Source: a virus
IMG/VR virus record: IMGVR_UViG_3300032397_000035
Span: 1 to 40,690 of that record
Strand: one strand, 5' to 3'
DNA: 40,690 nt
In this document: piece by piece, positions 1 through 40,690 of the stretch
Numbering within the stretch: the stretch's first letter is position 1
Layout of the letters: each line of letters opens with the position of its first letter
Made by a program: the position numbers and the translations under genes
Notes under the pieces: generated by a model
What the model was told of the DNA's origin: nothing
Database searches by the model: none
The model's input: only the letters and a program-made list of their open reading frames with translations

Positions 1-127
1 TTCATTTTGAACCTCCTAAATTTTCAATATTTTGTTTTATATGCGACAACTGAACATCCGCACCGTTTTGCATATATCTGAGATTTATTTTACCTTTATT
101 ATCAATTCCGGTGCTTTCAAATATTAA
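1..127. repeat. Terminal direct repeat, left copy
   Basis: The first 127 bases are identical to the last 127 (40564-40690). This suggests a circular or circularly permuted molecule cut at an assembly k-mer; 127 is a common assembler k value (inference). The same 127-mer is also present internally at 38594-38720, and the first mismatch falls at the next base (T at 128, C at 38721). The contig therefore ends exactly where two repeat copies diverge. Confidence 0.9.
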
Positions 128-154
128 TTTACTATCATCAATCTCCTTTATCAC
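2..154 (-). pseudogene. C-terminal remnant of an array gene
   Basis: This open frame encodes the same last 50 residues as the array gene at 38595-38873 (VIKEIDDSK ... NLGGSK). The N-terminal half and the shared EILKYYISKEDV block are missing. Upstream, the frame runs into sequence belonging to another gene's 5' end and meets a stop at 203-205. Only a GTG at 154 could start it and no ribosome binding site is evident. Probably a broken recombination product. Confidence 0.6.
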
Positions 155-206
155 ATCTTCCTTTATCCATTTTATATTTCTTTCCTTTTTCCATATAATT
201 TTTCAC
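138..206 (-). pseudogene. Truncated small ORF, hybrid of two array genes
   Basis: A GTG start behind a good GGAGGT site opens a 22-residue frame beginning like the leader ORF at 38125-38181 (MEKGKKYKMD). It then leaves that homology and stops out of frame inside the remnant of another array gene. The breakpoint lies near 148-150, at the end of the shared motif cacatcttccttt. Either a genuine recombination scar or a mis-assembly in repeats. Confidence 0.5.
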
Positions 207-221
207 TTTTCACCTCCATAA

Positions 222-449
222 TTACTCCTTAATTCTCGGCAATAATTGTAACTGAATTTTTCCATTTGCCCAGATATGTTCTAACCTAAAATTACTTCCT
301 TTAATTTCTATAATTTCTCCGATATTAAATATCTCGTTTTTTTCTACTGGTTTTGAAATTAAGGGATATAAAGATGGCTCTTTTCTGAATGCCTCATACA
401 GCATTTCTTTTGTCTTTGCCGTTATAAAAGTTCCATTTCCACTATCCAT
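222..449 (-). CDS. Small hypothetical protein of the repeat array
   Basis: 75 residues, function not recognised. It overlaps the preceding gene by one base (start 449, stop of the 449-667 gene) and ends in an IKE tail whose codons help form the next ribosome binding site, as at 39951-40133. The middle (NIGEIIEIKGSNFRLEHIWANGK) looks like a small beta-strand-rich domain. It lacks both recurring array modules, so it may be a cargo gene between cassettes. Confidence 0.7.
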   Translation of the reverse strand: MDSGNGTFITAKTKEMLYEAFRKEPSLYPLISKPVEKNEIFNIGEIIEIKGSNFRLEHIWANGKIQLQLLPRIKE

Positions 450-667
450 TATCTTCCACCTCCTAATTCTTCATCTAATCTCTTGCGGATATAATCAATA
501 CAGTCATTCCAATCAATATTTCCCTCAAATTTCTTTAAAGGCAACAATCCCTCTATCACTTTCCGTAGGTCGGATTTGACTGAACACTCCTTGCATTTCA
601 TATGAAACCGAGTGCACAAATTGCATACACTTTTAGACATAAACTCCTCAACCGTCATTCTAAACAT
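449..667 (-). CDS. Array family B protein (MTVEEF ... DYIRKRLDEELGG)
   Basis: 72 residues. The start MTVEEF and the end SDLRKVIEGLLPLKK ... DYIRKRLDEELGGG are shared with genes at 38178, 39531 and 40130. The centre is unique and cysteine-rich (CNLC, CKEC), possibly metal binding. The start is preceded by GGAGGTTCAA, which also encodes the GGS tail of the upstream gene. The 3' half is nearly identical in DNA to 38178-38390. Function unknown. Confidence 0.8.
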   Translation of the reverse strand: MFRMTVEEFMSKSVCNLCTRFHMKCKECSVKSDLRKVIEGLLPLKKFEGNIDWNDCIDYIRKRLDEELGGGR

Positions 668-932
668 TTGAACCTCCTAATTTTTCTATAACTTTCTTTA
701 AGTTTTCAAATATTATTTTATCGTGTAAGTGTAGAGCATTGTTTAATATTGACTTATCATATACTAATGTTTGGGAATATTCAGAAAATTCATCAATTAC
801 TTTCATCACATCTTTCTTTGAGATGTAATGCTTCTCGATTTCCTTTATAGCTTCTCTTAATGTGTATCCATCACTGCCTTGCGTAGCTTTATTTTCAAAA
901 CTTATTAAAATTTCTCCTAATTTATCATTCAT
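660..932 (-). CDS. Array family A protein (HYISKKDV module)
   Basis: 90 residues. The middle block IEKHYISKKDVMKVIDE matches the recurring family A module (EILKHYISKEDV) of genes at 37431, 38374, 38595 and 40347; N- and C-terminal parts are unrelated to them except for the final KLGGSN. It precedes a family B gene with coupled translation, as at 40347/40130 and 38374/38178. The start follows GAGGTGATAAA, formed by the end of the 929-1141 gene. Function unknown. Confidence 0.8.
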   Translation of the reverse strand: MNDKLGEILISFENKATQGSDGYTLREAIKEIEKHYISKKDVMKVIDEFSEYSQTLVYDKSILNNALHLHDKIIFENLKKVIEKLGGSNV

Positions 933-1141
933 TTTATCACCTCTTTAATTTTTCTGAATTCATCTGCCTTCGGACAAGTAGCAAAATGGCTTTCGTATCC
1001 TTGTTTTAATTCCCAAATAATATTGGTATATCCGGCATTACAACCAACATAAACCAATTTTGGCTTAATGTCTATTGGAATAATTTTCCCATTTAACTTT
1101 ATCCAGTTTATTTCCGCTCCACACCCTTTACATTTTGCCAT
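929..1141 (-). CDS. Small zinc-ribbon protein
   Basis: 70 residues. The opening CKGCGAEINWIKLNGKIIPID and a later C resemble a widespread phage zinc-ribbon family with a CxxCG knuckle and a GKxIPxD stretch (recalled resemblance). The second metal pair is not clear-cut. It overlaps the next gene by 4 bases. A role in nucleic-acid binding is only a guess. Confidence 0.75.
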   Translation of the reverse strand: MAKCKGCGAEINWIKLNGKIIPIDIKPKLVYVGCNAGYTNIIWELKQGYESHFATCPKADEFRKIKEVIK

Positions 1142-4486: not shown

Positions 4487-5407
4487 CTATCCTATTAACT
4501 TGCCTTCGCATAATTTCAAAAAATGTGCCAGGTCTTTTTGCATAATCATACTCATTTTTAATTCTATTTCGGCCCCTAGATTATAGACAGTCCTGATTTC
4601 AGCATTTAACACTTTCGGTGGTATTTTATTTGTCTTCATTAAATCTTTTAATAATTCACCCTCTTTCCTTGTAATATATTCACTATCAGGTTCAATAGCA
4701 TCATTTTCATCTGGTTTAAGCCCTTTTTCCTTTGTTTTTTCTTTATCCTGTGCGTTTTCCTGCAACTTTTCCTGATTTTCCGTATCTTTATTCGGTTCGG
4801 CTGGATGACACCAACCCGTTCCTGCTGGTTTTAATGCCAAATCGGGAATTTTAACCGTAGAAGTCGCCTTTTGAGGTTCGGCAGTATTTTCCTTTTCAAA
4901 TGTCATTTCTTCCGCAGGGGTTGGTTGGTATCCGGCTAATACCATAACCCAACTTAATGCAATTCTAAACGCCTTACTGACCGCCCTGGTCTCTGACATT
5001 GACCGCAGGGCGTATTCTTCATTTCCCTTTTTGCTATATTCCCAAGAGGCACATTCACTCTGGGCCCGGCTAACTAAATCCCCTTTGATATTCCTGACCT
5101 CGCAGTCGGAAACATATTTGACGCCCCTATCTATCCGCTCCTCTTTGACTTCAATTATCTGAGGAAATAGTCCGAGTAAAGCCCCCATCGTAGTCCACCC
5201 CTCACACCATACATATTTTTTACCCTTTATAATAGTAAACAACTTCTGCTTTTCTATAATGTCGCTTACCGCCTTTGCCACATTAGACGCCTTTTCTACT
5301 ATCCGGGTATAGTCATCAGTTCCGAATAATGAAACCGGTCTAATCTCCGGCTGAATAACCGCCACTTCCTGCTTTTTCGGTCTCCCTTTTTTCTTTACTT
5401 CTTCCAT
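4487..5407 (-). CDS. Putative single-strand annealing / recombination protein
   Basis: 306 residues. The N-terminus is basic (KKKGRPKKQ). Residues about 60-170 carry the stretches YVWCEGWTTMGALLG, AQSECASWE, YALRSMSETRAVSKAFR and MVLAGYQPTPAEEM, typical of a widespread phage family placed next to exonucleases. I infer an annealing role from context; a Rad52-like fold is possible but not shown here. The C-terminal third is charged and low complexity. First gene behind an attenuated promoter; start preceded by GGAGGTAAATAAA. Confidence 0.7.
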   Translation of the reverse strand: MEEVKKKGRPKKQEVAVIQPEIRPVSLFGTDDYTRIVEKASNVAKAVSDIIEKQKLFTIIKGKKYVWCEGWTTMGALLGLFPQIIEVKEERIDRGVKYVSDCEVRNIKGDLVSRAQSECASWEYSKKGNEEYALRSMSETRAVSKAFRIALSWVMVLAGYQPTPAEEMTFEKENTAEPQKATSTVKIPDLALKPAGTGWCHPAEPNKDTENQEKLQENAQDKEKTKEKGLKPDENDAIEPDSEYITRKEGELLKDLMKTNKIPPKVLNAEIRTVYNLGAEIELKMSMIMQKDLAHFLKLCEGKLIG

Positions 5408-5412
5408 TTTAT

Positions 5413-5598
5413 TTACCTCCGTAAATTTAATTCAATAAAAAAAGGGGAGCCGGAAATTATGATTTTATTCATAATCGTTGCACAGGTTATTGGATTAACC
5501 TGCCGGACTCCCCAAAATAAAAATAGCCGACTTTCTCTTAAAGATAATCGGCTAACTGAACATTTTACTTTAACTTTCAAATTATTTTTCTGCAACAT
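5413..5598 (-). CDS. Leader ORF 1, crossing a terminator-like hairpin
   Basis: An open frame of 61 codons begins about 14 nt after the predicted transcription start. It runs through both leader hairpins and the U-tract (read as FF) and stops 5 nt before the ATG of the recombination gene; its last codons CGG AGG TAA form that gene's ribosome binding site. An earlier in-frame ATG lies at 5613. The ribosome binding site is weak (GAGAAAGAA). Possibly a regulatory leader peptide; the product itself resembles nothing. Confidence 0.4.
   Translation of the reverse strand: MLQKNNLKVKVKCSVSRLSLRESRLFLFWGVRQVNPITCATIMNKIIISGSPFFIELNLRR
5437..5554 (-). terminator. Leader RNA 1: branched terminator-like structure (putative attenuator)
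   Basis: On the minus strand the leader holds a hairpin (5548-5554 with 5524-5530, UAGCCGA/UCGGCUA). A larger structure follows: an outer stem of 5503-5513 with 5444-5453 (GGGGAGUCCGG/CCGGCUCCCC, one bulge) enclosing two hairpins (5496-5502 with 5483-5489; 5469-5475 with 5456-5462). Seven U residues follow at once (5437-5443). This lies after a strong promoter and before the first gene, so it should terminate unless overridden. Confidence 0.7.
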
Positions 5599-5618
5599 AT
5601 TTTTCTTTCTCATTAGTA

Positions 5619-5646
5619 ATTATAGCACGGATTTTCAAAATGTCAA
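5619..5646 (-). promoter_or_regulatory. Promoter P-rec (TTGACA / TGC TATAAT, 16-bp spacer)
   Basis: Consensus -35 TTGACA (5641-5646), 16-bp spacer ending in TGC, -10 TATAAT (5619-5624). Transcription should start near 5612. An inverted repeat, TTTCAAAAT (5633-5641) and ATTTTGAAA (5652-5660), brackets the -35 box and could be an operator. Drives the recombination operon. Confidence 0.85.
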
Positions 5647-5694
5647 GAACTATTTTGAAATATTTTTTTTCTCTCGTCGTGAAATTATTGCTTT

Positions 5695-6290
5695 TCATTT
5701 AAACATATCCCCTTTTAGAAAATTTAATCTTGCCTGAATAATTTTTACATACTCCGGGTCTTTTTCTATGCCAATAAAAGAAAATCCCAAATTCTGAGCT
5801 GCAAATAAAGTGCTACCACTCCCAGCAAACATATCCAGCACAATTCCTTTTGGCGGAGTAATTAGTTTTATAAGATATTCCATAAGGGACAAACTTTTTA
5901 CCGTGGGATGGTTATTCCTCTGCATTATTTTTATATAAGGGTCTTTTAAATTTCCGATGGAACGCCCCAAAGTATTTTTAATACCACCTTCTTTTTTCGG
6001 TAATTCCTCACATCCGGCATTACGCTCAAACTTTGACGGCTTGGCACAGTAGAAAAAGCGGGAGGCAGAGCCGGAGTATGGTGCAATATTATTGTTTCCC
6101 TCGCCTCTATCATTATTTCGGACAGCCATTTAATCCAGTTATCCCGACCGCCTTTGTCATCGTCCCATGCCTGACTCATAAATGAAATACCACAAGGGGG
6201 GTCGGCAACAATACTATCAACCGAATTCTCTGGAATTGTTTTTAGTATTTCCTTTGAGTCACCGCATATTATCCTGTTCAGGTTATCCAT
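5695..6290 (-). pseudogene. DNA methyltransferase remnant (internal deletion plus frameshift)
   Basis: The first frame (6290 leftward) has the start of a phage N6A/N4C-type methyltransferase: IICGDS, then DPPCGISFM in place of DPPYG. After about residue 55 it leaves the family. The end of the family continues in another frame, open from 6129 to 5695: GSASRFFYCAKPSK, NNHPTVKSLSLMEYLIKL, then the SAM-binding DMFAGSGSTLFAA and FSFIGIEKD. The middle, normally well over 100 residues, is absent. Probably inactive unless the two pieces assemble. Confidence 0.8.
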
Positions 6291-6582
6291 ATATCTTTTT
6301 CCTGTTTTTCATTTCATCCCGTATTTCTTTTCGCTTTGCATTTAACTTACGCATTTTTTCAAATAGTTTTGAATATGCTTTTTGAATAGTGATGTTTAAT
6401 GAATATTTTGCAAAAATTTTTTCTCTCTTGAGTATAGGACTCAAATAAGATATTTCCCTATCAAGTTTCCTTAATTTATACCACAATTTAGATAATGTCA
6501 GGGAAGTGGGACTCGAACCCACACCGGCAGGCCGTCGCCTCTTGTTCTGACCACTTAAACTATTCCCTGATAAATTATCCAT
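6283..6582 (-). CDS. Hypothetical basic protein whose frame crosses a tRNA-like element
   Basis: A 99-codon frame with AAGGAC before its ATG. Residues 1-30 are simply the translation of the tRNA-like sequence (VGSSPTSLT is typical of a read-through T-arm). The rest (LWYKLRKLDREISYL ... KLNAKRKEIRDEMKNRKK) is basic and helical and could be a real gene starting at a TTG at 6486. The stop overlaps the start region of the methyltransferase remnant. The true start is unresolved. Confidence 0.45.
   Translation of the reverse strand: MDNLSGNSLSGQNKRRRPAGVGSSPTSLTLSKLWYKLRKLDREISYLSPILKREKIFAKYSLNITIQKAYSKLFEKMRKLNAKRKEIRDEMKNRKKIYG
6498..6570 (-). tRNA. tRNA-like element with aberrant anticodon arm
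   Basis: On the minus strand, CAGGGAA pairs with TTCCCTG (acceptor). A D-arm follows, GTTT (6557-6560) with GAAC (6544-6547) enclosing a GG-containing loop. The T-arm is canonical: GTGGG, TTCGAGT, CCCAC (6522-6506). The anticodon region instead forms AGGC-GACG-GCCT (6540-6529), a 4-nt loop with no U33 or seven-base loop. No CCA is encoded. About 72 nt, slightly short. Likely a degenerate tRNA or a tRNA mimic. Confidence 0.65.
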
Positions 6583-6645
6583 ATTAAAGTCCTTTGTTAA
6601 GTTTGATTTTTAACTTTTTTATTTCCCGCCTGATTTCCCGTCTTT

Positions 6646-6903
6646 CTATTTTCTTTCTTCATAATTTTTACATTCTAATTCATCTTTTCCTGTCTCATAC
6701 AAACAAAATTTATAGGGTTTTGTGTTTGTCTTACAACAAGCATTAAACTTATCCCGATGACGACAAAATGAATAATACCACATATTAAATTCTACTGGTA
6801 TCGGTAAACATTGTTCGTTAATTGGTAATTTTGCCATATCTTCCAATATTCTTTTATTCCCTTCTCTTATATGTTTTGCTATTGTTTCTTCATTATATTT
6901 CAT
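6646..6903 (-). CDS. Hypothetical cysteine-containing protein
   Basis: 85 residues from the ATG at 6903, chosen because GAGGATAT precedes it (an upstream TTG at 6918 is also in frame). An N-terminal helix (NEETIAKHIREGNKRILEDMAK) is followed by WYYSFCRHRDKFNACC and two more cysteines, possibly a zinc site. Not recognised. Located just downstream of the helicase. Confidence 0.65.
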   Translation of the reverse strand: MKYNEETIAKHIREGNKRILEDMAKLPINEQCLPIPVEFNMWYYSFCRHRDKFNACCKTNTKPYKFCLYETGKDELECKNYEERK

Positions 6904-6914
6904 ATATCCTCGAT

Positions 6915-7013
6915 TCAAAATAATTTGTTAAGTTTCCTTATTGCTTTTCTTATTTCTTTTCTCTCAACTCTTTTACGATATTTCAATAATTTTTTTATTA
7001 CTTTGTCTTTCAT
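6915..7013 (-). CDS. Basic micro-protein
   Basis: 32 residues, about half Lys/Arg (KLLKYRKRVERKEIRKAIRKLNK), predicted as a single basic helix. Similar stretches recur nearby in other frames or genes (KRKEIRDEMK at 6283-6582 and an ORF remnant near 6600-6650), suggesting local duplication. Weak ribosome binding site. May bind RNA or DNA; uncertain as a gene. Confidence 0.45.
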   Translation of the reverse strand: MKDKVIKKLLKYRKRVERKEIRKAIRKLNKLF

Positions 7014-7021
7014 AAATTATT

Positions 7022-8440
7022 CTATCCATTCAGGTCTGCTCGGTTTTCTTCTATCTTATCAAATGCAGTTTTTATTTTATTATCTTCCTGCCGTTCTTCC
7101 TGTGACTGCCCGCCCGATATTTCCGATAATACTTTTTTTTCTTCTTCTTTGGTAGTTTCAATTTCCCGAAATGAAGTAATATTTGTCAAGAATTCCATTT
7201 TGACAAGCCCCTGGGCCCCATTCCTGTTTTTTTCAATTATTACTTCGGTTTCACTAATCCTATTACCCTGTTCAATTTCGTCTGCCATATTTGGTCTATA
7301 TAGCATTATGACTATATCGGCATCCTGTTCTATATTTCCGCTATCCCGCAGGTCAGCCAGAACCGGTCTCTTTTCTTTTCCTTTCCGCAATTCAGACCCC
7401 CGATTTAATTGAGACAACAAAATTACAGGGATATTCATATCTTTTGCAATTGCTTTCAATTCACCTGTAATTTCACCGATTTCATAATTTCTACTTTCGC
7501 CTCTAATCATCGGTTTAATTTTTTGCAAATAATCAATAATAATGACATCAGGTTTATATTGCATAGTCCTCGCCCGAATTTCCAATGTATTTATTGTGCT
7601 TGAATCATCAATGTAGAATTTTGTATCATATAAATTTTTTCCTATTTCAGTGAATTTATTCCATTCACTTTCTTTATTTATATATCCATTTTTTAATTTG
7701 TAAATTGTTATTTCGGAAAGTGTGCTTAATAATCTCGTTGCCAATTCTAACCTCATCATTTCAATAGAGAAAAATAAAACAATCTTTTTTTGTTTCAAAA
7801 TATTTATGGCAAGGTTCAGAGCAAAAGAAGTTTTACCAACTGTAGTCCGGGCCGCAATTATTGTCATTACTCCCGGTTCCAGACCACAAATTAAATAATC
7901 AAGTTTTTTATAGCCCGTTGATATCCCAGAGCAGGTTATTTTTTTCGTGTTTAAATCCTCAATGCGTTTCAATACATCGGGAATAATGTCTTTAATATGA
8001 AAAATATTAGATTTACTTTTTTCTTTTGATAATTCATATATTTCCTTTTCTATTTCGCCGATGAAGTTTTTTACTTCATCAGAAAAAATCCCTTCAGAAT
8101 TTTTTATTGCTTTTTGACAGATAGTTACTATTTTTCTTTTAAGGGAATTATTTTTTACAATCTCTATAAAGGATTTTATTCTATCAGGCACGACTGCCAC
8201 ATTTCGGCATTCCACCAAATAACTACCCTTAATATTTTCGGGTAATTCACTTATTATTAAAAATTCTTCTATTGGATTATTTGTCTTATATAATTTTACC
8301 ATTGCTGAATAAATTTTTTTATGAATATCATAATAAAAATCTGTTTCATCTAAATTTGAAATAACATCTGCCATTTTATCATTATTTATTAAGGCACATC
8401 CGATTATAATTTTTTCAGCATTCAGCACAATATCTTCCAT
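7022..8440 (-). CDS. Replicative DNA helicase, DnaB family
   Basis: 472 residues. The N-terminal helical domain (EKIIIGCALIN ...) matches the DnaB-N layout. The RecA-like core has GISTGYKKLD, Walker A ARTTVGKTS (197-205), FFSIEM, Walker B PDVIIIDYLQKI (D303), LLSQLNRG and DLRDSGNIEQDADIV. The last 40 residues are charged and variable. It unwinds DNA at the fork and is presumably loaded by the initiator encoded just upstream (14-nt gap). Walker A is slightly unusual (TTVGKT). Confidence 0.95.
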   Translation of the reverse strand: MEDIVLNAEKIIIGCALINNDKMADVISNLDETDFYYDIHKKIYSAMVKLYKTNNPIEEFLIISELPENIKGSYLVECRNVAVVPDRIKSFIEIVKNNSLKRKIVTICQKAIKNSEGIFSDEVKNFIGEIEKEIYELSKEKSKSNIFHIKDIIPDVLKRIEDLNTKKITCSGISTGYKKLDYLICGLEPGVMTIIAARTTVGKTSFALNLAINILKQKKIVLFFSIEMMRLELATRLLSTLSEITIYKLKNGYINKESEWNKFTEIGKNLYDTKFYIDDSSTINTLEIRARTMQYKPDVIIIDYLQKIKPMIRGESRNYEIGEITGELKAIAKDMNIPVILLSQLNRGSELRKGKEKRPVLADLRDSGNIEQDADIVIMLYRPNMADEIEQGNRISETEVIIEKNRNGAQGLVKMEFLTNITSFREIETTKEEEKKVLSEISGGQSQEERQEDNKIKTAFDKIEENRADLNG

Positions 8441-8453
8441 TTTATATTTCTCC

Positions 8454-9218
8454 TTACTTTATTTTATATTCCGCAGAATATTTTACAACCGTTTCAAGTG
8501 TCCAGTTCAGATTATCTTTTTCAAGTTTTTCTTTGACCCATTTCACACAGTCGGCGGATTTTTTGTAATCATCATCAAAATAATCTAATATGAGTTTTGC
8601 CGATTTAGAAAATCGCTTATAGTTAAGTTTATCCCACTTTCGCTGCTCAACAGGTTCCGGGCTGACATTTTTCAAAATTTTGTATATATACAGGACTTTG
8701 GATATATTGTCTTTAAGCAGGTATTCTTTATTATCATCAGCCGTTTTGGCTGATGTATGTATGTTGTCTTTTATATATGTCTTTTGTATATTGTCTTTTG
8801 TGTCTACCTGCTTGGGTAATAGTTGATTACCTGCTTGGGTAATAGTTGTTACCTGCTTGGGTAATAGTGCTATTACCTGCTTGGGTATTACCTGCTTGGG
8901 TAATAGTGACCATTCGGAATAATTCTTATTTATTCCTGTCATATAGGTTTTTCCTTTTTCCCCTGTATGAGTAATCATATTTTTATTTTTGAGTTTTTTT
9001 ATAGTTCTGGCAATATGTGATTGTTTAATATTTGTCATTTCCTTTATTTGTGATAATGAAATCCAATCCTCTTTTTTATTATATCCGTAAGTTTTTCTAA
9101 TTATGCAAAGAAATACAGCATTTTCGTAACTGGATAATATTCTTGATATTTTTAAATACTCTTCAAAAAGTTCATTAGATATTTTTACATATCCATTTTC
9201 AACCTGTGGATTTGCCAA
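8454..9218 (-). CDS. Replication initiator, lambda O-like, carrying the origin
   Basis: 254 residues. Residues 1-110 match the phage replication protein O N-terminal winged helix (NGYVKISNELFEEYL, RKTYGYNKKEDWISLSQI, ARTIKKLKNKNMI). The middle (about 115-150) is a translated run of iterons (LLPKQV repeats), and the C-terminus is helical and probably contacts the helicase. The start is TTG, 2 nt after leader ORF 2, with GAGG upstream. As in lambda, the initiator gene appears to contain its own binding sites. Confidence 0.85.
   Translation of the reverse strand: MANPQVENGYVKISNELFEEYLKISRILSSYENAVFLCIIRKTYGYNKKEDWISLSQIKEMTNIKQSHIARTIKKLKNKNMITHTGEKGKTYMTGINKNYSEWSLLPKQVIPKQVIALLPKQVTTITQAGNQLLPKQVDTKDNIQKTYIKDNIHTSAKTADDNKEYLLKDNISKVLYIYKILKNVSPEPVEQRKWDKLNYKRFSKSAKLILDYFDDDYKKSADCVKWVKEKLEKDNLNWTLETVVKYSAEYKIK
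8735..8755. repeat. Hairpin within the probable origin
   Basis: Perfect 8-bp inverted repeat CATCAGCC / GGCTGATG with a 5-base loop. It lies between the iterons and an AT-rich stretch with repeated TTGTCTTTT motifs (about 8760-8800). Such a palindrome beside iterons also occurs in lambda ori. Confidence 0.6.
8805..8906. repeat. Five iterons, probable replication origin
   Basis: Five direct copies of TACCTGCTTGGGTAATAG (one truncated to TACCTGCTTGGGTA) start at 8805, 8828, 8850, 8874 and 8889. Spacings of 23, 22, 24 and 15 bp break the reading frame. Four copies are read as LLPKQV or IPKQV, and one (8828) as ITQAGN. DNA identity despite different frames shows that DNA, not protein, is conserved, as expected for initiator binding sites. 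Confidence 0.85.
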
Positions 9219-9220
9219 AG

Positions 9221-9334
9221 TTAAACCTCAAAAAAAAAGCGCCCGGGAGTGAAAGGCAGGAATTTTTGCAAAGTCCTGTAATCCCCCGGGCACATAAACT
9301 TAAAGTGAATTGTAAAATAAAAAAGACCTTGCAT
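9221..9334 (-). CDS. Leader ORF 2, crossing a terminator hairpin
   Basis: 37 codons (MQGLFYF ... RFFFEV) start about 20 nt after the predicted transcript start, behind AGGTAGG. The frame passes through both arms of the terminator hairpin, reads the U-tract as FFF and stops 2 nt before the TTG start of the initiator gene. The spacing suggests translational coupling and control of the terminator by ribosomes. The peptide itself resembles nothing. Confidence 0.45.
   Translation of the reverse strand: MQGLFYFTIHFKFMCPGDYRTLQKFLPFTPGRFFFEV
9230..9291 (-). terminator. Leader RNA 2: terminator hairpin with nine U residues (putative attenuator)
   Basis: Outer stem GCCCGGG (9285-9291) with CCCGGGC (9241-9247). 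Inside it a hairpin CAGGA (9274-9278) with UCCUG (9257-9261). Two bases after the stem comes an unbroken run of nine U (9230-9238), and the initiator's ribosome binding site follows. By sequence this is a strong intrinsic terminator placed between a strong promoter and an essential gene, so read-through must be regulated. Confidence 0.8.
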
Positions 9335-9362
9335 AAAATCAAACCTACCTTTCTAATATGTA

Positions 9363-9390
9363 ATTATAGCACTGGATAGCAAAAAGTCAA
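9363..9390 (-). promoter_or_regulatory. Promoter P-rep (TTGACT / TGC TATAAT, 16-bp spacer)
   Basis: -35 TTGACT (9385-9390), 16-bp spacer ending in TGC, -10 TATAAT (9363-9368). It overlaps the stop codon of the upstream gene. Transcription should start near 9356 and read into leader RNA 2 and the replication genes. Confidence 0.85.
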
Positions 9391-9569
9391 GGTTTATTTT
9401 TTATTTCCAGCCCCATAGCGTCAATGAGTTCAGGCGGGGTCTCAAGATAATTCGGGCAGGTATTCTCAGTATTCAGGATACATTTATTTCCCCTGTCAAT
9501 TCTGCCACATTCCAAATTCGGATAATTCGGTAAGTCGTCAATAAACCATTTACAATTTTCCTTTTTCAT
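9387..9569 (-). CDS. Small cysteine-containing protein
   Basis: 60 residues from the ATG at 9569, which overlaps the stop of the preceding gene (ATGA) and follows GGAGAT. The pattern CKWF ... LECG ... NKCIL ... CPNYLE gives four spaced cysteines, probably a small metal-binding fold. Function not recognised. Last gene before promoter P-rep. Confidence 0.65.
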   Translation of the reverse strand: MKKENCKWFIDDLPNYPNLECGRIDRGNKCILNTENTCPNYLETPPELIDAMGLEIKNKP

Positions 9570-11079: not shown

Positions 11080-11253
11080 CTATTTCCGGTGCCCGGTATC
11101 CGGGACGGAATAAAAAAAGGCGGCCGCGCAGGAAGAATCGGGTAGACCCAAACCTACACAACCGCCAAGAGTTTTAAAATTAAAATAGCTCACCACCTGT
11201 GAGCCAATAAAATTGTTTCTTTTCACCTCCCGATTTTTTTTTACCCGATTCAT
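11080..11253 (-). CDS. Leader ORF 3, crossing a terminator hairpin
   Basis: 57 codons (MNRVKKNREVKRN ...) start 25 nt or so after the transcript start behind a strong GAGGAAGG site. The frame runs through the 14-bp terminator stem, reads its U-tract as FF, and stops 11 nt before the next ATG. Of the three leader ORFs this has the best ribosome binding site. The basic N-terminus (RVKKNREVKR) could itself bind RNA, but this is speculation. Confidence 0.5.
   Translation of the reverse strand: MNRVKKNREVKRNNFIGSQVVSYFNFKTLGGCVGLGLPDSSCAAAFFYSVPDTGHRK
11112..11166 (-). terminator. Leader RNA 3: 14-bp terminator hairpin with U-tract (putative attenuator)
   Basis: GGCGGUUGUGUAGG (downward from 11166) pairs with CCUGCGCGGCCGCC (to 11119), 14 continuous pairs including G-U. 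The loop contains a GGGU-CUA-CCC mini-hairpin. Seven U residues follow (11112-11118). An inner AGG...CCUG helix is also present in leaders 1 and 2. Confidence 0.8.
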
Positions 11254-11275: not shown

Positions 11276-11303
11276 ATCATAGCAAAGTATTTTGATTTGT
11301 CAA
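11276..11303 (-). promoter_or_regulatory. Promoter P-early (TTGACA / TGC TATGAT, 16-bp spacer)
   Basis: -35 TTGACA (11298-11303), 16-bp spacer ending in TGC, -10 TATGAT (11276-11281). A 12-bp AT palindrome TATTTTAAAATA (11308-11319) lies just upstream. About 130 bases between here and the late-operon end at 11433 hold no gene that I can support. Confidence 0.8.
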
Positions 11304-37210: not shown

Positions 37211-37438
37211 TTATGTCTTTTCCTGTTTAATTTTTTCTAATAGTAACTTCTCAAAATCAGCATTGCAATCCGTATCAATACTTTTTATTATACTTTCAAA
37301 ATAACTCCACATATCTTCCTTTGAGATATAATACTTTTTATAATACAAACAAGATTGCAAATATTTACATCTATCTTGCACACAATCATATCCATATACT
37401 GGACAATCATTTTTTAAACTTTTTTTTATTTTATCCAT
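37211..37438 (-). CDS. Array family A-related protein (YYISKEDM)
   Basis: 75 residues. The block KKYYISKEDMWSYFE matches the family A module. The N-terminus is cysteine-rich (CPVYGYDCVQDRCKYLQSC) and unrelated to other members. It ends EKIKQEKT without the LGGS tail, and the array stops here. The start follows GGGAGGTTCAA, the tail codons of the preceding gene. Function unknown. Confidence 0.75.
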   Translation of the reverse strand: MDKIKKSLKNDCPVYGYDCVQDRCKYLQSCLYYKKYYISKEDMWSYFESIIKSIDTDCNADFEKLLLEKIKQEKT

Positions 37439-37652
37439 TTGAACCTCCCAATTTTCCTATGGTTTGTTTTAATCTATCTTTAATCTGACAAAAACAATTA
37501 TTATCCAAAATTCTATGCACATCTTCCTTCGCAATGTAGTGTTTCAGGATTTCTTCTTCTCCTTCAACCATTGCTTCCAAATGTGCCCTTACCCCATTGC
37601 CATCACTATAATTTTGTATTATGATATGCAATATTTCTCTTAACTTGCTCAT
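37431..37652 (-). CDS. Array family A protein (HYIAKEDV)
   Basis: 73 residues: MSKLREILHIIIQN ... EGEEEILKHYIAKEDVHRILDN ... RLKQTIGKLGGSNG. It carries the recurring block with one change (A for S), and the LGGSN tail that doubles as the next gene's ribosome binding site. Start MSKLxxIL is shared with the 38595 gene; the rest of the N- and C-termini is distinct. Confidence 0.78.
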   Translation of the reverse strand: MSKLREILHIIIQNYSDGNGVRAHLEAMVEGEEEILKHYIAKEDVHRILDNNCFCQIKDRLKQTIGKLGGSNG

Positions 37653-37921
37653 TTCTTTGCCTCCAGTTTATTCCCGAACACATAATTCTGCATCGCCAAA
37701 CAAACATAATTTATCCTATCCTGCAATACCCTACCACTTTCTAATTTATCAATCCAAATTACAACATCACTCTCTTGCTCTTGATATTCTGTATCATAAG
37801 TATTAAACACAGAATTAATTTCTCGGGGTTCTCCAATATCCCTCAATAATATTCCCTGTCTATTACCCTGTGTTACGCTGGCAATCAAAATTCTACCTTC
37901 AGATAAAATAACTTCTTTCAT
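37649..37921 (-). CDS. Hypothetical protein of the array
   Basis: 90 residues from the ATG at 37921, coupled by ATGA and preceded by GAGGAGGCAAAG. Beta-rich start (EVILSEGRILIASVTQGNRQGILLRDIGEP) and a helical end (DRINYVCLAMQNYVF). Not related to the A or B modules. No recognised family. Confidence 0.65.
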   Translation of the reverse strand: MKEVILSEGRILIASVTQGNRQGILLRDIGEPREINSVFNTYDTEYQEQESDVVIWIDKLESGRVLQDRINYVCLAMQNYVFGNKLEAKK

Positions 37922-38124
37922 TTCTTTGCCTCCTCTCTTGCCTTCATACATTCGGGGCAAGGTTTTGTATTATTTTTATTTACCCTTATAACTTTTCCAA
38001 ATATTTTACAAAATGCCACCGGATGAAATACAAATACACTTGGACTGAGAAAAGAACATAGCACTGTCCCATTTTTTTCGCAATACTTTTTTTCAGGGAT
38101 TTCAACTTCAATTTTTATTTTCAT
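37918..38124 (-). CDS. Cysteine-containing hypothetical protein of the array
   Basis: 68 residues from the ATG at 38124, behind GGAGGTGATAAA. KIKIEVEIPEKKYCEKNG, a central hydrophobic stretch and CPECMKAREEAKK give a possible C...C...CxxC metal site. An in-frame upstream ORF from GTG 38181 (MEKGKKYKMD) is duplicated at 138-206. Confidence 0.65.
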   Translation of the reverse strand: MKIKIEVEIPEKKYCEKNGTVLCSFLSPSVFVFHPVAFCKIFGKVIRVNKNNTKPCPECMKAREEAKK

Positions 38125-38177
38125 TTTATCACCTCCATTATCCATTTTATATTTCTTTCCTTTTTCCATATAATTTT

Positions 38178-38390
38178 TCACTTTCCACCTCCCAATTCTT
38201 CATCTAACCTCTTGCGGATATAATCAATACAGTCATTCCAATCAATATTTCCCTCAAATTTCTTTAAAGGCAACAATCCCTCTATCACTTTCCGCAGGTC
38301 GGATTTTAAGAGGGGGTCTACTTTTACCGTCTCATCACCACTCATTTCTCCAGACCATTTATATAAAAACTCCTCAACCGACATCTTCAT
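38178..38390 (-). CDS. Array family B protein (MSVEEF)
   Basis: 70 residues from the ATG at 38390, preceded by GGGAGGTTCAA. Conserved start MSVEEF and conserved end SDLRKVIEGLLPLKK ... DYIRKRLDEELGG, DNA-level near-identity with 449-667 in the 3' half. The variable middle here (LYKWSGEMSGDETVKVDPLL) has no cysteines, unlike its paralogues. Follows a family A gene. Confidence 0.8.
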   Translation of the reverse strand: MKMSVEEFLYKWSGEMSGDETVKVDPLLKSDLRKVIEGLLPLKKFEGNIDWNDCIDYIRKRLDEELGGGK

Positions 38391-38598
38391 TTGAACCTCC
38401 CACCTTTTCAAGATTTTCTTTTAGTTTCAATAATACCATAGGTTCTATACCCTGCACGGATTCTAATAATATTTTTACATCTTCCTTTGAGATGTAATGT
38501 TTCAGGATTTCGTTTTCCGCTTTTAATAATCTATCTATTGTTCTTGGGCTTATAATAAGATTAAATTCACATTCCAATATTTCTTTTATTCTGTTCAT
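38374..38598 (-). CDS. Array family A protein (MNRIKEIL ... HYISKEDV)
   Basis: 74 residues. The first 42 residues are nearly the same as in the gene at 40347 (MNRIKEIL, NLIISPRTIDRLLKAE, EILKHYISKEDV); the C-terminal 30 are unrelated. That sharp change just after the ISKEDV block shows module exchange at this point. The tail VGGSNEDVG extends past the usual stop into the next gene. Confidence 0.8.
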   Translation of the reverse strand: MNRIKEILECEFNLIISPRTIDRLLKAENEILKHYISKEDVKILLESVQGIEPMVLLKLKENLEKVGGSNEDVG

Positions 38599-38720
38599 TT
38601 TGAACCTCCTAAATTTTCAATATTTTGTTTTATATGCGACAACTGAACATCCGCACCGTTTTGCATATATCTGAGATTTATTTTACCTTTATTATCAATT
38701 CCGGTGCTTTCAAATATTAA
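38576..38720. repeat. Internal copy of the terminal repeat
   Basis: 145 bp identical to 40546-40690, of which the last 127 bp are also identical to 1-127. The copy spans the junction between two array genes (38595-38873 and 38374-38598). It makes the array a place where homologous recombination, or an assembly error, can add or remove about 1.97 kb. Confidence 0.9.
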
Positions 38721-38873
38721 CTTACTATCATCAATCTCCTTTATCACATCTTCCTTTGAGATGTAGTATTTCAGGATTTCCAATTCTGTTCCTGCCCATA
38801 ACCCTAAATTATAACCATTCGTTTTCTCTAAACCATCTTTTAATTTTTGCAATATGTTTTGTAACTTACTCAT
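38595..38873 (-). CDS. Array family A protein (YYISKEDV)
   Basis: 92 residues from the ATG at 38873, with GGAGGTG upstream. MSKLQNILQKLKDGLEK ... EILKYYISKEDVIKEIDDSK ... HIKQNIENLGGSK. Its last 50 residues recur as the remnant at 2-154. Stop overlaps the next start (ATGA). Function unknown. Confidence 0.8.
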   Translation of the reverse strand: MSKLQNILQKLKDGLEKTNGYNLGLWAGTELEILKYYISKEDVIKEIDDSKLIFESTGIDNKGKINLRYMQNGADVQLSHIKQNIENLGGSK

Positions 38874-38884
38874 TTTTTCACCTC

Positions 38885-39142
38885 CTATTTCAGCCACTTG
38901 TCTTTGCTTTCTTTAAATGATTTTTCTAAATCGATTGCCTTATAAACTGTAATATTGTTAAGATATAATATTTTATTAAATTGTTTCCAGTCAATCTCCA
39001 CTTTCCTGTATCCGGCGGAATAGATAATTTCAGACAATTCATTTACATATCTACATTTAGCATATTTCCTATTACAATTATTAACTACTGCATTTATTGA
39101 AGAACATTTATCACAAATTATCTTTTTCATTTCTTCTTGCAT
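38885..39142 (-). CDS. Cysteine-rich hypothetical protein of the array
   Basis: 85 residues. CDKCSSINAVVNNCNRKYAKC gives four cysteines that could bind zinc; then a helix pair (ELSEIIYSAGYRKVEIDWKQFNKIL). AAGGAGATAAT precedes the start. It lacks the A or B modules but lies between such genes. Confidence 0.65.
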   Translation of the reverse strand: MQEEMKKIICDKCSSINAVVNNCNRKYAKCRYVNELSEIIYSAGYRKVEIDWKQFNKILYLNNITVYKAIDLEKSFKESKDKWLK

Positions 39143-39378
39143 ATTATCTCCTTACATGCAATACTTATATTTTTATACCAACATTTCACATCACAACTAT
39201 CTTTCTTTTTATGTGGAACTGAATGAGGACAAGAACATAATTCCGTTTTTTCTTCACAAATATATAATATCTGTTTTTTCTTCACTTTCCGCAGGCTGGA
39301 TTTTAATTCTTCTCGGACAGAATGATTCGCCCCGTTGCCCCATTCATTAAAAAACTCCTCAACCGTCATTTTATCCAT
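39127..39378 (-). CDS. Divergent array family B protein, C-terminus replaced
   Basis: 83 residues. Starts MDKMTVEEFFNEW and reaches a decayed SSLRKV, but then a cysteine-rich tail (CSCPHSVPHKKKDSCDVKCWYKN) replaces the usual DYIRKRLDEELGG. Either a cassette whose 3' module was swapped or a truncated fusion. Overlaps the next gene by 16 bases. Confidence 0.7.
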   Translation of the reverse strand: MDKMTVEEFFNEWGNGANHSVREELKSSLRKVKKKQILYICEEKTELCSCPHSVPHKKKDSCDVKCWYKNISIACKEIICKKK

Positions 39379-39538
39379 TTGAACCTCCTAATTCGTCTTC
39401 AAGTTCCTCTAATTTCTCTTGTTCTTGTATAAAAATACTAAATGGTTTTATATCATCAAGGCGTTCTTTTATTGTTTCTATTTCTAATTGTAAAATATTT
39501 ATTTTGTTTATTAACTCCTCAACTGTCATCTTATCCAT
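39371..39538 (-). CDS. Short array family B-start protein, coiled coil
   Basis: 55 residues: MDKMTVEELINKINILQLEIETIKERLDDIKPF ... LEELEDELGGSNG. The MTVEEL start and ELGGSNG end match the array's standard ends, but the middle is a simple coiled coil with Ile/Leu heptads. This shows that unrelated sequence can lie between the same ends. The start follows GGAGGTTCAA. Confidence 0.7.
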   Translation of the reverse strand: MDKMTVEELINKINILQLEIETIKERLDDIKPFSIFIQEQEKLEELEDELGGSNG

Positions 39539-39755
39539 TTGAACCTCCTAATTCTTCATCTAATCTCTTGCGGATATAATCAATAACATCCTTTGCAGAA
39601 TATACACCCTTGTCAGGCAATAATCCCTCTATCACTTTCCGCAGGTCGGATTTTAACAATGGAATACAAGATGAACATTCTGCAACATTACAGTCTATGG
39701 TTTTATTCCCACAATGATAATTTTCAGCAAACTCCTCAACTGTCATCTCATCCAT
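39531..39755 (-). CDS. Array family B protein (DKGVYSAKD variant)
   Basis: 74 residues: MDEMTVEEF, variable CGNKTIDCNVAECSSC, then KSDLRKVIEGLLPDKGVYSAKDVIDYIRKRLDEELGGSNG. Shares the DKGVYSAKD ending with 40130-40354, while 449 and 38178 carry LKKFEGNIDWNDC. The cysteine pattern differs from its paralogues. Function unknown. Confidence 0.8.
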   Translation of the reverse strand: MDEMTVEEFAENYHCGNKTIDCNVAECSSCIPLLKSDLRKVIEGLLPDKGVYSAKDVIDYIRKRLDEELGGSNG

Positions 39756-39764
39756 TTGAACCTC

Positions 39765-39935
39765 CTAATTTTTCTTTAATTCTTCAATCGTAATTTTGAC
39801 ATTTTTTTTAATAAAAGGTCTTAAAAAGTCATCAATAAAAATACCATCATCGGAAGGTTTTGGAATTATATAAATAGGTGACTTCTTATATTCCCCAATA
39901 AAACCACTCCAAACTTTTCCTTTAATTATTTTCAC
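39765..39935 (-). CDS. Small hypothetical cargo protein of the array
   Basis: 56 residues from a GTG start (GGAGGTGGAAA upstream): KIIKGKVWSGFIGEYKKSPIYIIPKPSDDGIFIDDFLRPFIKK. No A or B module, mainly beta strands. Follows the same junction (GGAGTAATTATGGAGGTG) found before 138-206. Confidence 0.6.
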   Translation of the reverse strand: MKIIKGKVWSGFIGEYKKSPIYIIPKPSDDGIFIDDFLRPFIKKNVKITIEELKKN

Positions 39936-39950
39936 TTTCCACCTCCATAA

Positions 39951-40133
39951 TTACTCCTTATTTTTTCTTATCTTATCTTTTTCTTTTGAAAGATTAAATA
40001 ATAACGAATGAAATTCTTCTCCATCCACTATATCATCCTCATTATTATCTTTGATTTCGTCTTCGTTCATACTTTCTTTTGCCATATCTCCGGCATTATC
40101 TATCATCCAATCTCTAAAAGCATATCTATTCAC
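39951..40133 (-). CDS. Acidic hypothetical cargo protein of the array
   Basis: 60 residues from a GTG start. Basic start (NRYAFRDWMIDNAGDMAKES) and an acidic centre (NEDEIKDNNEDDIVDGEE). Its end NKE and following stop form the repeated junction with the next gene. Strongly acidic small phage proteins sometimes mimic DNA, but nothing more specific supports that here. Confidence 0.6.
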   Translation of the reverse strand: MNRYAFRDWMIDNAGDMAKESMNEDEIKDNNEDDIVDGEEFHSLLFNLSKEKDKIRKNKE

Positions 40134-40354
40134 TTTCCACCTCCCAATTCTTCATCTAATCTCTTGCGGATATAATCAATTACATCTTTTGCAGAATATA
40201 CACCCTTGTCAGGCAATAATCCTTCTATCACTTTCCGCAGGTCGGATTTCATATTAACATAACAAGATTTTTTATATACGCCTTTACAAGAATTTACACC
40301 ACATTTTGGACAGATATAAGTTCCTATAAACTCCTCAACCGTAATCTTATCCAT
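40130..40354 (-). CDS. Array family B protein (zinc-finger-like centre)
   Basis: 74 residues. MDKITVEEF, then a centre CPKCGVNSCKGVYKKSC with a CPxCG knuckle, then KSDLRKVIEGLLPDKGVYSAKDVIDYIRKRLDEELGGGK. Nearly identical 3' half to 39531-39755, unrelated centre. Preceded by a family A gene, as usual. Confidence 0.8.
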   Translation of the reverse strand: MDKITVEEFIGTYICPKCGVNSCKGVYKKSCYVNMKSDLRKVIEGLLPDKGVYSAKDVIDYIRKRLDEELGGGK

Positions 40355-40568
40355 TTGAACCTCCTAATTTGTATATGAAATCCAATAATTCTCTAACAAC
40401 CATTTCGTGTGTATATCCAAACCTTTTTTTATCAATTATTTTCATCACATCTTCCTTTGAGATGTAATATTTCAGGATTTCTTTTTCCGCTTTTAATAAT
40501 CTATCTATTGTTCTTGGGCTTATAATAAGATTAAATTCATATTTTAATATTTCTTTTATTCTGTTCAT
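40347..40568 (-). CDS. Array family A protein (MNRIKEIL ... YYISKEDV)
   Basis: 73 residues. N-terminal 42 residues nearly match 38374-38598; after KYYISKEDV the sequence (MKIIDKKRFGYTHEMVVRELLDFIYKLGGSNG) is different. The start overlaps the stop of the gene that wraps around the window end (2-154 remnant if circular). The ribosome binding site lies in the repeated 127-mer. Confidence 0.8.
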   Translation of the reverse strand: MNRIKEILKYEFNLIISPRTIDRLLKAEKEILKYYISKEDVMKIIDKKRFGYTHEMVVRELLDFIYKLGGSNG

Positions 40569-40690
40569 TTTGAACCTCCTAAATTTTCAATATTTTGTTT
40601 TATATGCGACAACTGAACATCCGCACCGTTTTGCATATATCTGAGATTTATTTTACCTTTATTATCAATTCCGGTGCTTTCAAATATTAA
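40564..40690. repeat. Terminal direct repeat, right copy
   Basis: Exact copy of bases 1-127. Identity with the internal copy at 38594-38720 extends further left, so 40546-40690 matches 38576-38720 over 145 bp. The unit carries the 3' end of one small gene (LGGSK tail), the ribosome binding site and the start of the next gene (MNRIKEIL). Confidence 0.9.

What the first reader, a model, noticed from the sequence alone, without database searches (positions are those of the whole stretch)
5413..5646. Leader 1: strong promoter, branched terminator-like RNA and an ORF running through it
A consensus promoter is followed by about 205 nt of leader with a three-way-junction terminator and U7, then the recombination operon. 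A 61-codon frame crosses the structure and ends 5 nt before the first gene. Ribosomes translating the ORF would melt the hairpin, so operon expression may sense translation or need an antitermination factor.
Basis: partly seen in the sequence, partly recalled or inferred. Interest (0 to 1): 0.7.

Follow-up and report, generated by a model that had tools for sequence, protein, structure and literature searches.

The report
Phage leader ORFs spanning early-operon terminators
In this phage each of three early operons sits behind a strong promoter and a transcription-stop hairpin that a tiny reading frame runs straight through; the same layout recurs in many unrelated phages, usually with the start of the frame complementary to the inside of the hairpin, which suggests the genes are switched on only when ribosomes start translating in time.

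Summary
It is not unique. Two more leaders in the window (before repO and before an early gene of unknown function) have the same anatomy, and ATG frames crossing the terminators are unlikely by chance (0.9%, 6% and 3.5% in shuffles). A survey of RepO relatives found such terminators in 34 of 191 independent loci, against 3.6% of other genes. There the 5' leader (A) is complementary to the terminator interior (A'): own pairs beat swapped pairs, 0 of 20,000 permutations in each of two sets. In the replication set the leader frame was open through the terminator in 12/16 (other frames 4/32), and A overlapped its ribosome-binding site in 9/16 (3.7 expected); the first set did not show these two features significantly. 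Leader 1 itself has only a weak A:A' (6 bp). Best reading: a translation-gated intrinsic terminator, like E. coli pyrBI, whose leader-ORF start can be masked by the terminator loop. No Rfam family matches. Direction and trigger of the switch are inferred.

The parts
5619..5646 (-). Leader 1 promoter TTGACA-16-TGCTATAAT
   Evidence: 12/12 match; 0.03 expected per shuffled window
5413..5598 (-). Leader 1 ORF, 61 codons + stop (66 codons if it starts at the possibly leaderless ATG at 5613), through both hairpins
   Evidence: 0.9% of shuffles have such an ATG frame
5590..5596 (-). A of leader 1: GTTGCA directly behind the AT of the ATG, 6 bp complementary to the junction strand
   Evidence: weak, not significant alone
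5514..5553 (-). H1: hairpin AGCCGATTATCTTTAAGAGAAAGTCGGCT followed by ATTTTTATTTT (pause or first terminator)
5437..5513 (-). Three-way-junction terminator with U7
5476..5482 (-). A' of leader 1: junction strand TGCAACG
   Evidence: 83% unpaired in the terminator fold
4487..5407 (-). First gene of the operon, phrog_19042 (unknown function), followed by exonuclease (phrog_298) and NinB-like (phrog_72) genes
9363..9390 (-). Leader 2 promoter TTGACT-16-TGCTATAAT
9221..9334 (-). Leader 2 ORF, 37 codons, through the terminator, ends 2 nt before repO (TTG 9218)
9344..9353 (-). A of leader 2: GAAAGGTAGG (ribosome-binding site), 10-bp helix with A' incl. one G-U; further pairing downstream
9230..9293 (-). 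Leader 2 terminator (GTGCCCGGGGG...CTCCCGGGCGC + U9); A' CCTGCCTTTC at 9251-9260
11276..11303 (-). Leader 3 promoter TTGACA-16-TGCTATGAT
11080..11253 (-). Leader 3 ORF, 57 codons, SD GAGGAAGG, through the terminator, ends 11 nt before ATG 11068
11242..11251 (-). A of leader 3: GAATCGGGTA, 10 bp complementary to A' TACCCGATTC (11135-11144); the SD can add AGGAA:TTCCT
11188..11205 (-). Leader 3 first hairpin (H1-like), followed by TATTTTAATTTT
11113..11166 (-). Leader 3 terminator (GGCGGTTGTGTAGG...CCTGCGCGGCCGCC + U7)

Best explanation
The leader is a translation-gated transcription attenuator. RNA polymerase starts at a consensus promoter and meets an intrinsic terminator (B:B' plus a U run) 100-170 nt downstream, before the first gene. 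The leader ORF runs through the terminator and stops at the gene. If a ribosome loads early and follows RNA polymerase, it keeps B and B' apart, transcription continues, and the ribosome arrives at the start of the gene. If it does not, the terminator folds and only a short RNA is made. In the class as a whole the ORF start (A) is complementary to a stretch inside the terminator (A'). Once A' is transcribed it can mask the start site, so a late ribosome cannot load; the released short RNA could do the same in trans to new transcripts. Shown by sequence: promoter, terminator, open frame, A:A' complementarity, recurrence. Inferred: that ribosomes raise read-through, that A:A' forms in the cell and lowers translation, and what signal the phage reads by it.
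For: Leader 1 parts. Three leaders with the same anatomy in one phage. Chance of an ATG frame through the terminator 0.9%, 6% and 3.5%. RepO survey: wide terminator before repO in 18/136 and 16/55 independent loci against 72/2027 other gene starts. A:A' own versus swapped: 7.47 vs 5.57 and 7.81 vs 5.57 nt, 0/20,000 permutations each. Replication set with rules fixed beforehand: frame open through the terminator 12/16 against 4/32 in the other frames, Fisher 3e-5; A overlaps the SD/start in 9/16, expected 3.7. A' is less paired in the terminator fold than the rest of the interior, 57% vs 38% unpaired. Ribosomes are known to suppress intrinsic terminators in or just behind ORFs, and the pyrBI terminator lies inside a leader ORF (PMC4824070; PMC10135430).
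Against: In the first survey set the ORF effect was weak (5/17 vs 3/34, P 0.07) and A did not favour the start site (4/17 vs 3.5 expected). Some leaders (L058, L091, L025) have A:A' but no evident leader ORF start in A; in L019, L022, L051 and L084 the frame stops inside or before the terminator. Leader 1 has only 6 bp of A:A' and a weak SD. Terminators less than about 100 nt from a start codon are usually not suppressed by ribosomes unless RNAP pauses (PMC4824070). No close relatives of these leaders were found, so no codon-level or compensatory-change test was possible. No expression data.
Confidence: 0.55

Rival explanations
1. Antiterminator switch. A:A' forms before B' is made and holds the RNA in a read-through form; a ribosome (or protein or RNA) on A frees the terminator. 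Translation initiation would then switch the operon off.
For: When each leader is folded without the last terminator arm, A:A' closes the structure in leaders 2 and 3, L019, L022, L025, L039, L047, L051, L011, L058 and L102; it needs no leader ORF, which fits L058.
Against: A' does not overlap the terminator arms and tends to be unpaired in the terminator fold, so both can coexist. In the replication set most leader frames run through the terminator and stop at the gene, which this model does not need.
Confidence: 0.2
2. RNA-based autoregulation or immunity: the terminated leader RNA, with A' exposed in its loop, acts in trans as an antisense to the start region A of new transcripts and makes them terminate, as P4 CI RNA and P1 C4 RNA do.
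For: A' is exposed in the terminator fold; A/A' sequences differ between leaders and phages, as specificity groups would; precedents IsrK and P4 CI RNA (PMC4825925).
Against: No sign of a separate processed antisense RNA; A and A' lie on the same molecule, so pairing in cis is always nearer. Not testable here.
Confidence: 0.15
3. Conventional phage antitermination: a phage protein or put/nut-like RNA modifies RNAP so that it ignores the terminators; the ORFs are incidental.
For: A terminator behind each early promoter is what an antitermination system needs.
Against: No known antitermination protein seen among the proteins scanned; no common RNA motif among the three leaders was seen apart from the promoter and TSS region; it does not explain A:A' or the open frames.
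Confidence: 0.15
4. Ordinary terminators of the upstream operons; open frames and complementarity are chance.
For: AT-rich phage DNA; one of the two other frames of leader 2 is also open.
Against: Promoters lie upstream of the terminators and there is little room behind them (20-51 nt). ORF, A:A' and enrichment statistics.
Confidence: 0.07

Closest known systems
E. coli pyrBI attenuator (pyrL leader)
   Same: Promoter, U-rich leader, intrinsic terminator inside a leader ORF of about 135 bp; ribosome coupling to RNAP permits read-through (PMC4824070, PMC10135430).
   Different: pyrBI responds to UTP through pausing; the complementarity between the leader-ORF start and the terminator interior is, to my knowledge, not part of it. 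Here the element serves phage replication and recombination operons.
P4 CI RNA and P1/P7 C4 RNA phage immunity
   Same: A phage replication or antirepressor operon is controlled by premature termination that depends on pairing between segments of the same transcript (P4: PMC4825925; P1/P7 C4-icd from my own knowledge).
   Different: Those use a processed antisense RNA, and C4 acts through Rho (own knowledge); here A' lies inside the intrinsic terminator itself, and no processing signal or Rfam match was found.
Gifsy-1 IsrK-orf45-anrP
   Same: A terminated short RNA and its read-through mRNA, with a short ORF translationally coupled to the next gene (PMC4825925).
   Different: IsrK in trans activates; its terminator lies before the short ORF, not inside it.
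Plasmid rep-gene attenuation and leader-peptide control (pT181/pIP501; R1 CopA-tap-repA)
   Same: Replication initiator controlled by alternative leader RNA structures, or by masking of a leader peptide start coupled to rep (own knowledge).
   Different: There the antisense RNA is transcribed from the opposite strand; no strong opposing promoter lies in leader 1.

Membership tests
pyrBI-type translation-coupled attenuator | Intrinsic terminator between promoter and first gene | tested here: met
pyrBI-type translation-coupled attenuator | Leader ORF open through the terminator and ending near the first gene | tested here: met
   three window leaders; 12/16
pyrBI-type translation-coupled attenuator | RNAP pause site that lets the ribosome catch up | tested here: inconclusive
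   Hairpin plus U-rich tract upstream of the terminator in leaders 1 and 3; U-rich tract only in leader 2
pyrBI-type translation-coupled attenuator | Read-through depends on translation of the leader | not testable with these tools
   needs reporter assays
P4 CI / P1 C4 antisense immunity | Match to the known RNA families | tested here: not met
   No Rfam match in the window or in 14 loci with such leaders
P4 CI / P1 C4 antisense immunity | Complementary segments within one transcript, one of them at an ORF start | tested here: met
   for the class; weak for leader 1
P4 CI / P1 C4 antisense immunity | Trans-acting processed small RNA | not testable with these tools
   needs RNA data
Known riboswitch or RNA leader in Rfam | Covariance-model match above gathering score | tested here: not met

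The most novel reading that the evidence does not exclude
A widespread, sequence-divergent class of phage RNA switch in which the terminator hairpin of an early operon carries in its loop an antisense to its own leader-ORF start, so that every terminated transcript is a small RNA able to shut the same operon of a sister or superinfecting genome: dose-dependent copy control or superinfection immunity built from one hairpin and without a protein repressor.
Probability: 0.2. Interest if true: 0.85.

Novelty: new variant of a known kind. Interest (0 to 1): 0.62.

Why it matters
It points to a recurrent, so far uncatalogued regulatory design in front of phage replication and recombination genes, found in viral contigs and in contigs of MAGs assigned to Omnitrophota and Ignavibacteria among others. 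Sequence or covariance models would miss it, because A and A' change freely while staying complementary. It would couple early phage gene expression to ribosome supply, and it makes transcription-translation coupling testable in a natural setting with simple two-part compensatory mutations.

Tried and rejected
Close relatives of the first gene or of DNA 4487-9400: none in viral contigs or phages. Rfam at gathering and relaxed thresholds: nothing credible. MCP-related records lack the first gene. Covariation between close leader pairs: L047 against L173/L254 (attenuator not retained), L294/L297/L305, L023/L096 and L066/L090 gave no usable A/A' changes. My first hand-picked start sites gave 11/15 open frames against 4/30; because starts were chosen by eye I replaced this by a rule, which was not significant in set 1 but was in the untouched set 2. 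In the window the rule picks a different, wrong-frame ATG for leader 1, so the window leaders were judged by the shuffle test instead. A phage antitermination protein was not seen. No covariance model was built, since the leaders are not homologous.

Full report
Observation. The promoter at 5646-5619 is a 12/12 match with an extended -10, the only such site in the window and expected 0.03 times in a shuffle. The leader from about 5612 to 5408 folds far better than shuffles (z -4.4) into a hairpin with a U-rich tail (H1) and a three-way-junction terminator followed by U7. The 61-codon frame from ATG 5598 crosses both and stops 5 nt before the first gene. A frame from an ATG crosses the terminator in 0.9% of shuffles of the upstream part. 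ATG 5613 lies at the predicted TSS and would give a leaderless 66-codon version.

Surroundings. The same kind of promoter (TTGACW-16-TGCTATRAT) starts two more leaders: 9390, before repO (8454-9218) and dnaB, and 11303, before a 92-aa early gene of unknown function. Both have a strong terminator with U9 or U7 between promoter and gene, and both have a reading frame that starts near the TSS, runs through the terminator and stops 2 or 11 nt before the gene. ATG frames of this kind appear in 6% and 3.5% of shuffles. Leaders 1 and 3 also share a first hairpin with a UAUUUUWAUUUU tail.

Relatives. The DNA and the first gene have no close relatives in the collections, but RepO does. A first search gave L011, a GC-rich phage with the same anatomy before repO. 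Alignment searches gave 136 upstream regions and later 55 further independent ones. In the first set, strong U-tailed hairpins with long closing stems and large interiors lay close in front of repO in many loci. Reading these showed that the leader just behind the promoter is complementary to the inside of the terminator, giving the order A-B-A'-B'-U.

Tests. Longest complement between the 5' leader and the interior, own against swapped leaders: 7.36 vs 5.46 nt in a first mixed set. With fixed rules: set 1 7.47 vs 5.57, own matches of at least 8 nt in 8/17 against 14/272 swaps; untouched set 2 7.81 vs 5.57, 8/16 against 10/240. In all cases 0 of 20,000 permutations reached the observed mean. 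Wide terminators precede repO in 34/191 loci but only 72/2027 other genes with free upstream space, and there the complement is much weaker, 5.96 vs 5.48. The frequency in set 2 may be inflated, because its search was seeded with attenuator-bearing loci. Rule-picked leader starts: frame open through the terminator in 5/17 (other frames 3/34, P 0.07) in set 1 and 12/16 (4/32, P 3e-5) in set 2. A overlaps the start region in 4/17 (3.5 expected) and 9/16 (3.7 expected). A' is less paired than the rest of the interior in the terminator fold (0.57 vs 0.38 unpaired). The window leaders: leader 2 pairs its SD GAAAGGUAGG with CCUGCCUUUC, leader 3 pairs GAAUCGGGUA with UACCCGAUUC, and leader 1 has only GUUGCA with the junction strand UGCAAC, which alone is not significant.

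Mechanism. Published work shows that ribosomes suppress intrinsic terminators in or just behind translated frames, that this weakens within the first 100 bp because coupling is not yet made, and that in pyrBI a terminator inside a 135-bp leader ORF is read through when RNAP pauses (PMC4824070; PMC10135430). The leaders here have start-to-U distances of 73-155 nt, where small changes in coupling matter most. I therefore favour translation-gated read-through, with A:A' as a mask of the leader start that acts in cis and possibly in trans. An antiterminator role for A:A' is the main rival, and a trans-acting antisense RNA as in P4 is the most novel one (PMC4825925). Nothing here shows the direction of the effect.

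Known kinds. No Rfam family matches the window leaders or 14 loci with such leaders. Literature searches found the general mechanisms but, in the held library, no description of this layout; absence from that library is not proof of novelty. I rate it a new variant of attenuation.

Noticed in passing
window 5695-6290 (-): A DNA N6/N4-methyltransferase is split over two overlapping frames (5946-6290 and 5695-6129) that match successive parts of phrog_67; frameshifted gene, programmed frameshift or assembly error.
   Followed up: no
window 8805-8909: Five copies of a 21-bp repeat (TACCTGCTTGGGTAATAGTTG) inside repO, placed like the iterons of a lambda-type replication origin.
   Followed up: no
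window 1-1000 and 37400-40690: Arrays of related small genes with long direct repeats shared between the two ends (164 nt at 99%, 124 nt at 98%) and within the right end (259 nt at 95%).
   Followed up: no
window 6497-6569 (-): tRNA-Arg (anticodon acg) inside the replication operon.
   Followed up: no
window 34091-34025 and 36819-36792 (-): Two further TTGAAA-16-TGCTATAAT promoters; the first has a small hairpin GCCACTAAAACAAAGGTGGC at the transcript start before a 571-aa gene.
   Followed up: partly
L129:5170-5250, L135:350-450, L071:8870-8960, L152:2690-2750: Leaders with the same A-B-A'-B'-U layout in front of genes other than repO, of unknown function where searched.
   Followed up: partly
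L054 leader, 42 nt before repO: The terminator interior is complementary over 15 nt to the sequence just behind the U run, a variant in which the partner lies downstream; L235 looks similar.
   Followed up: no
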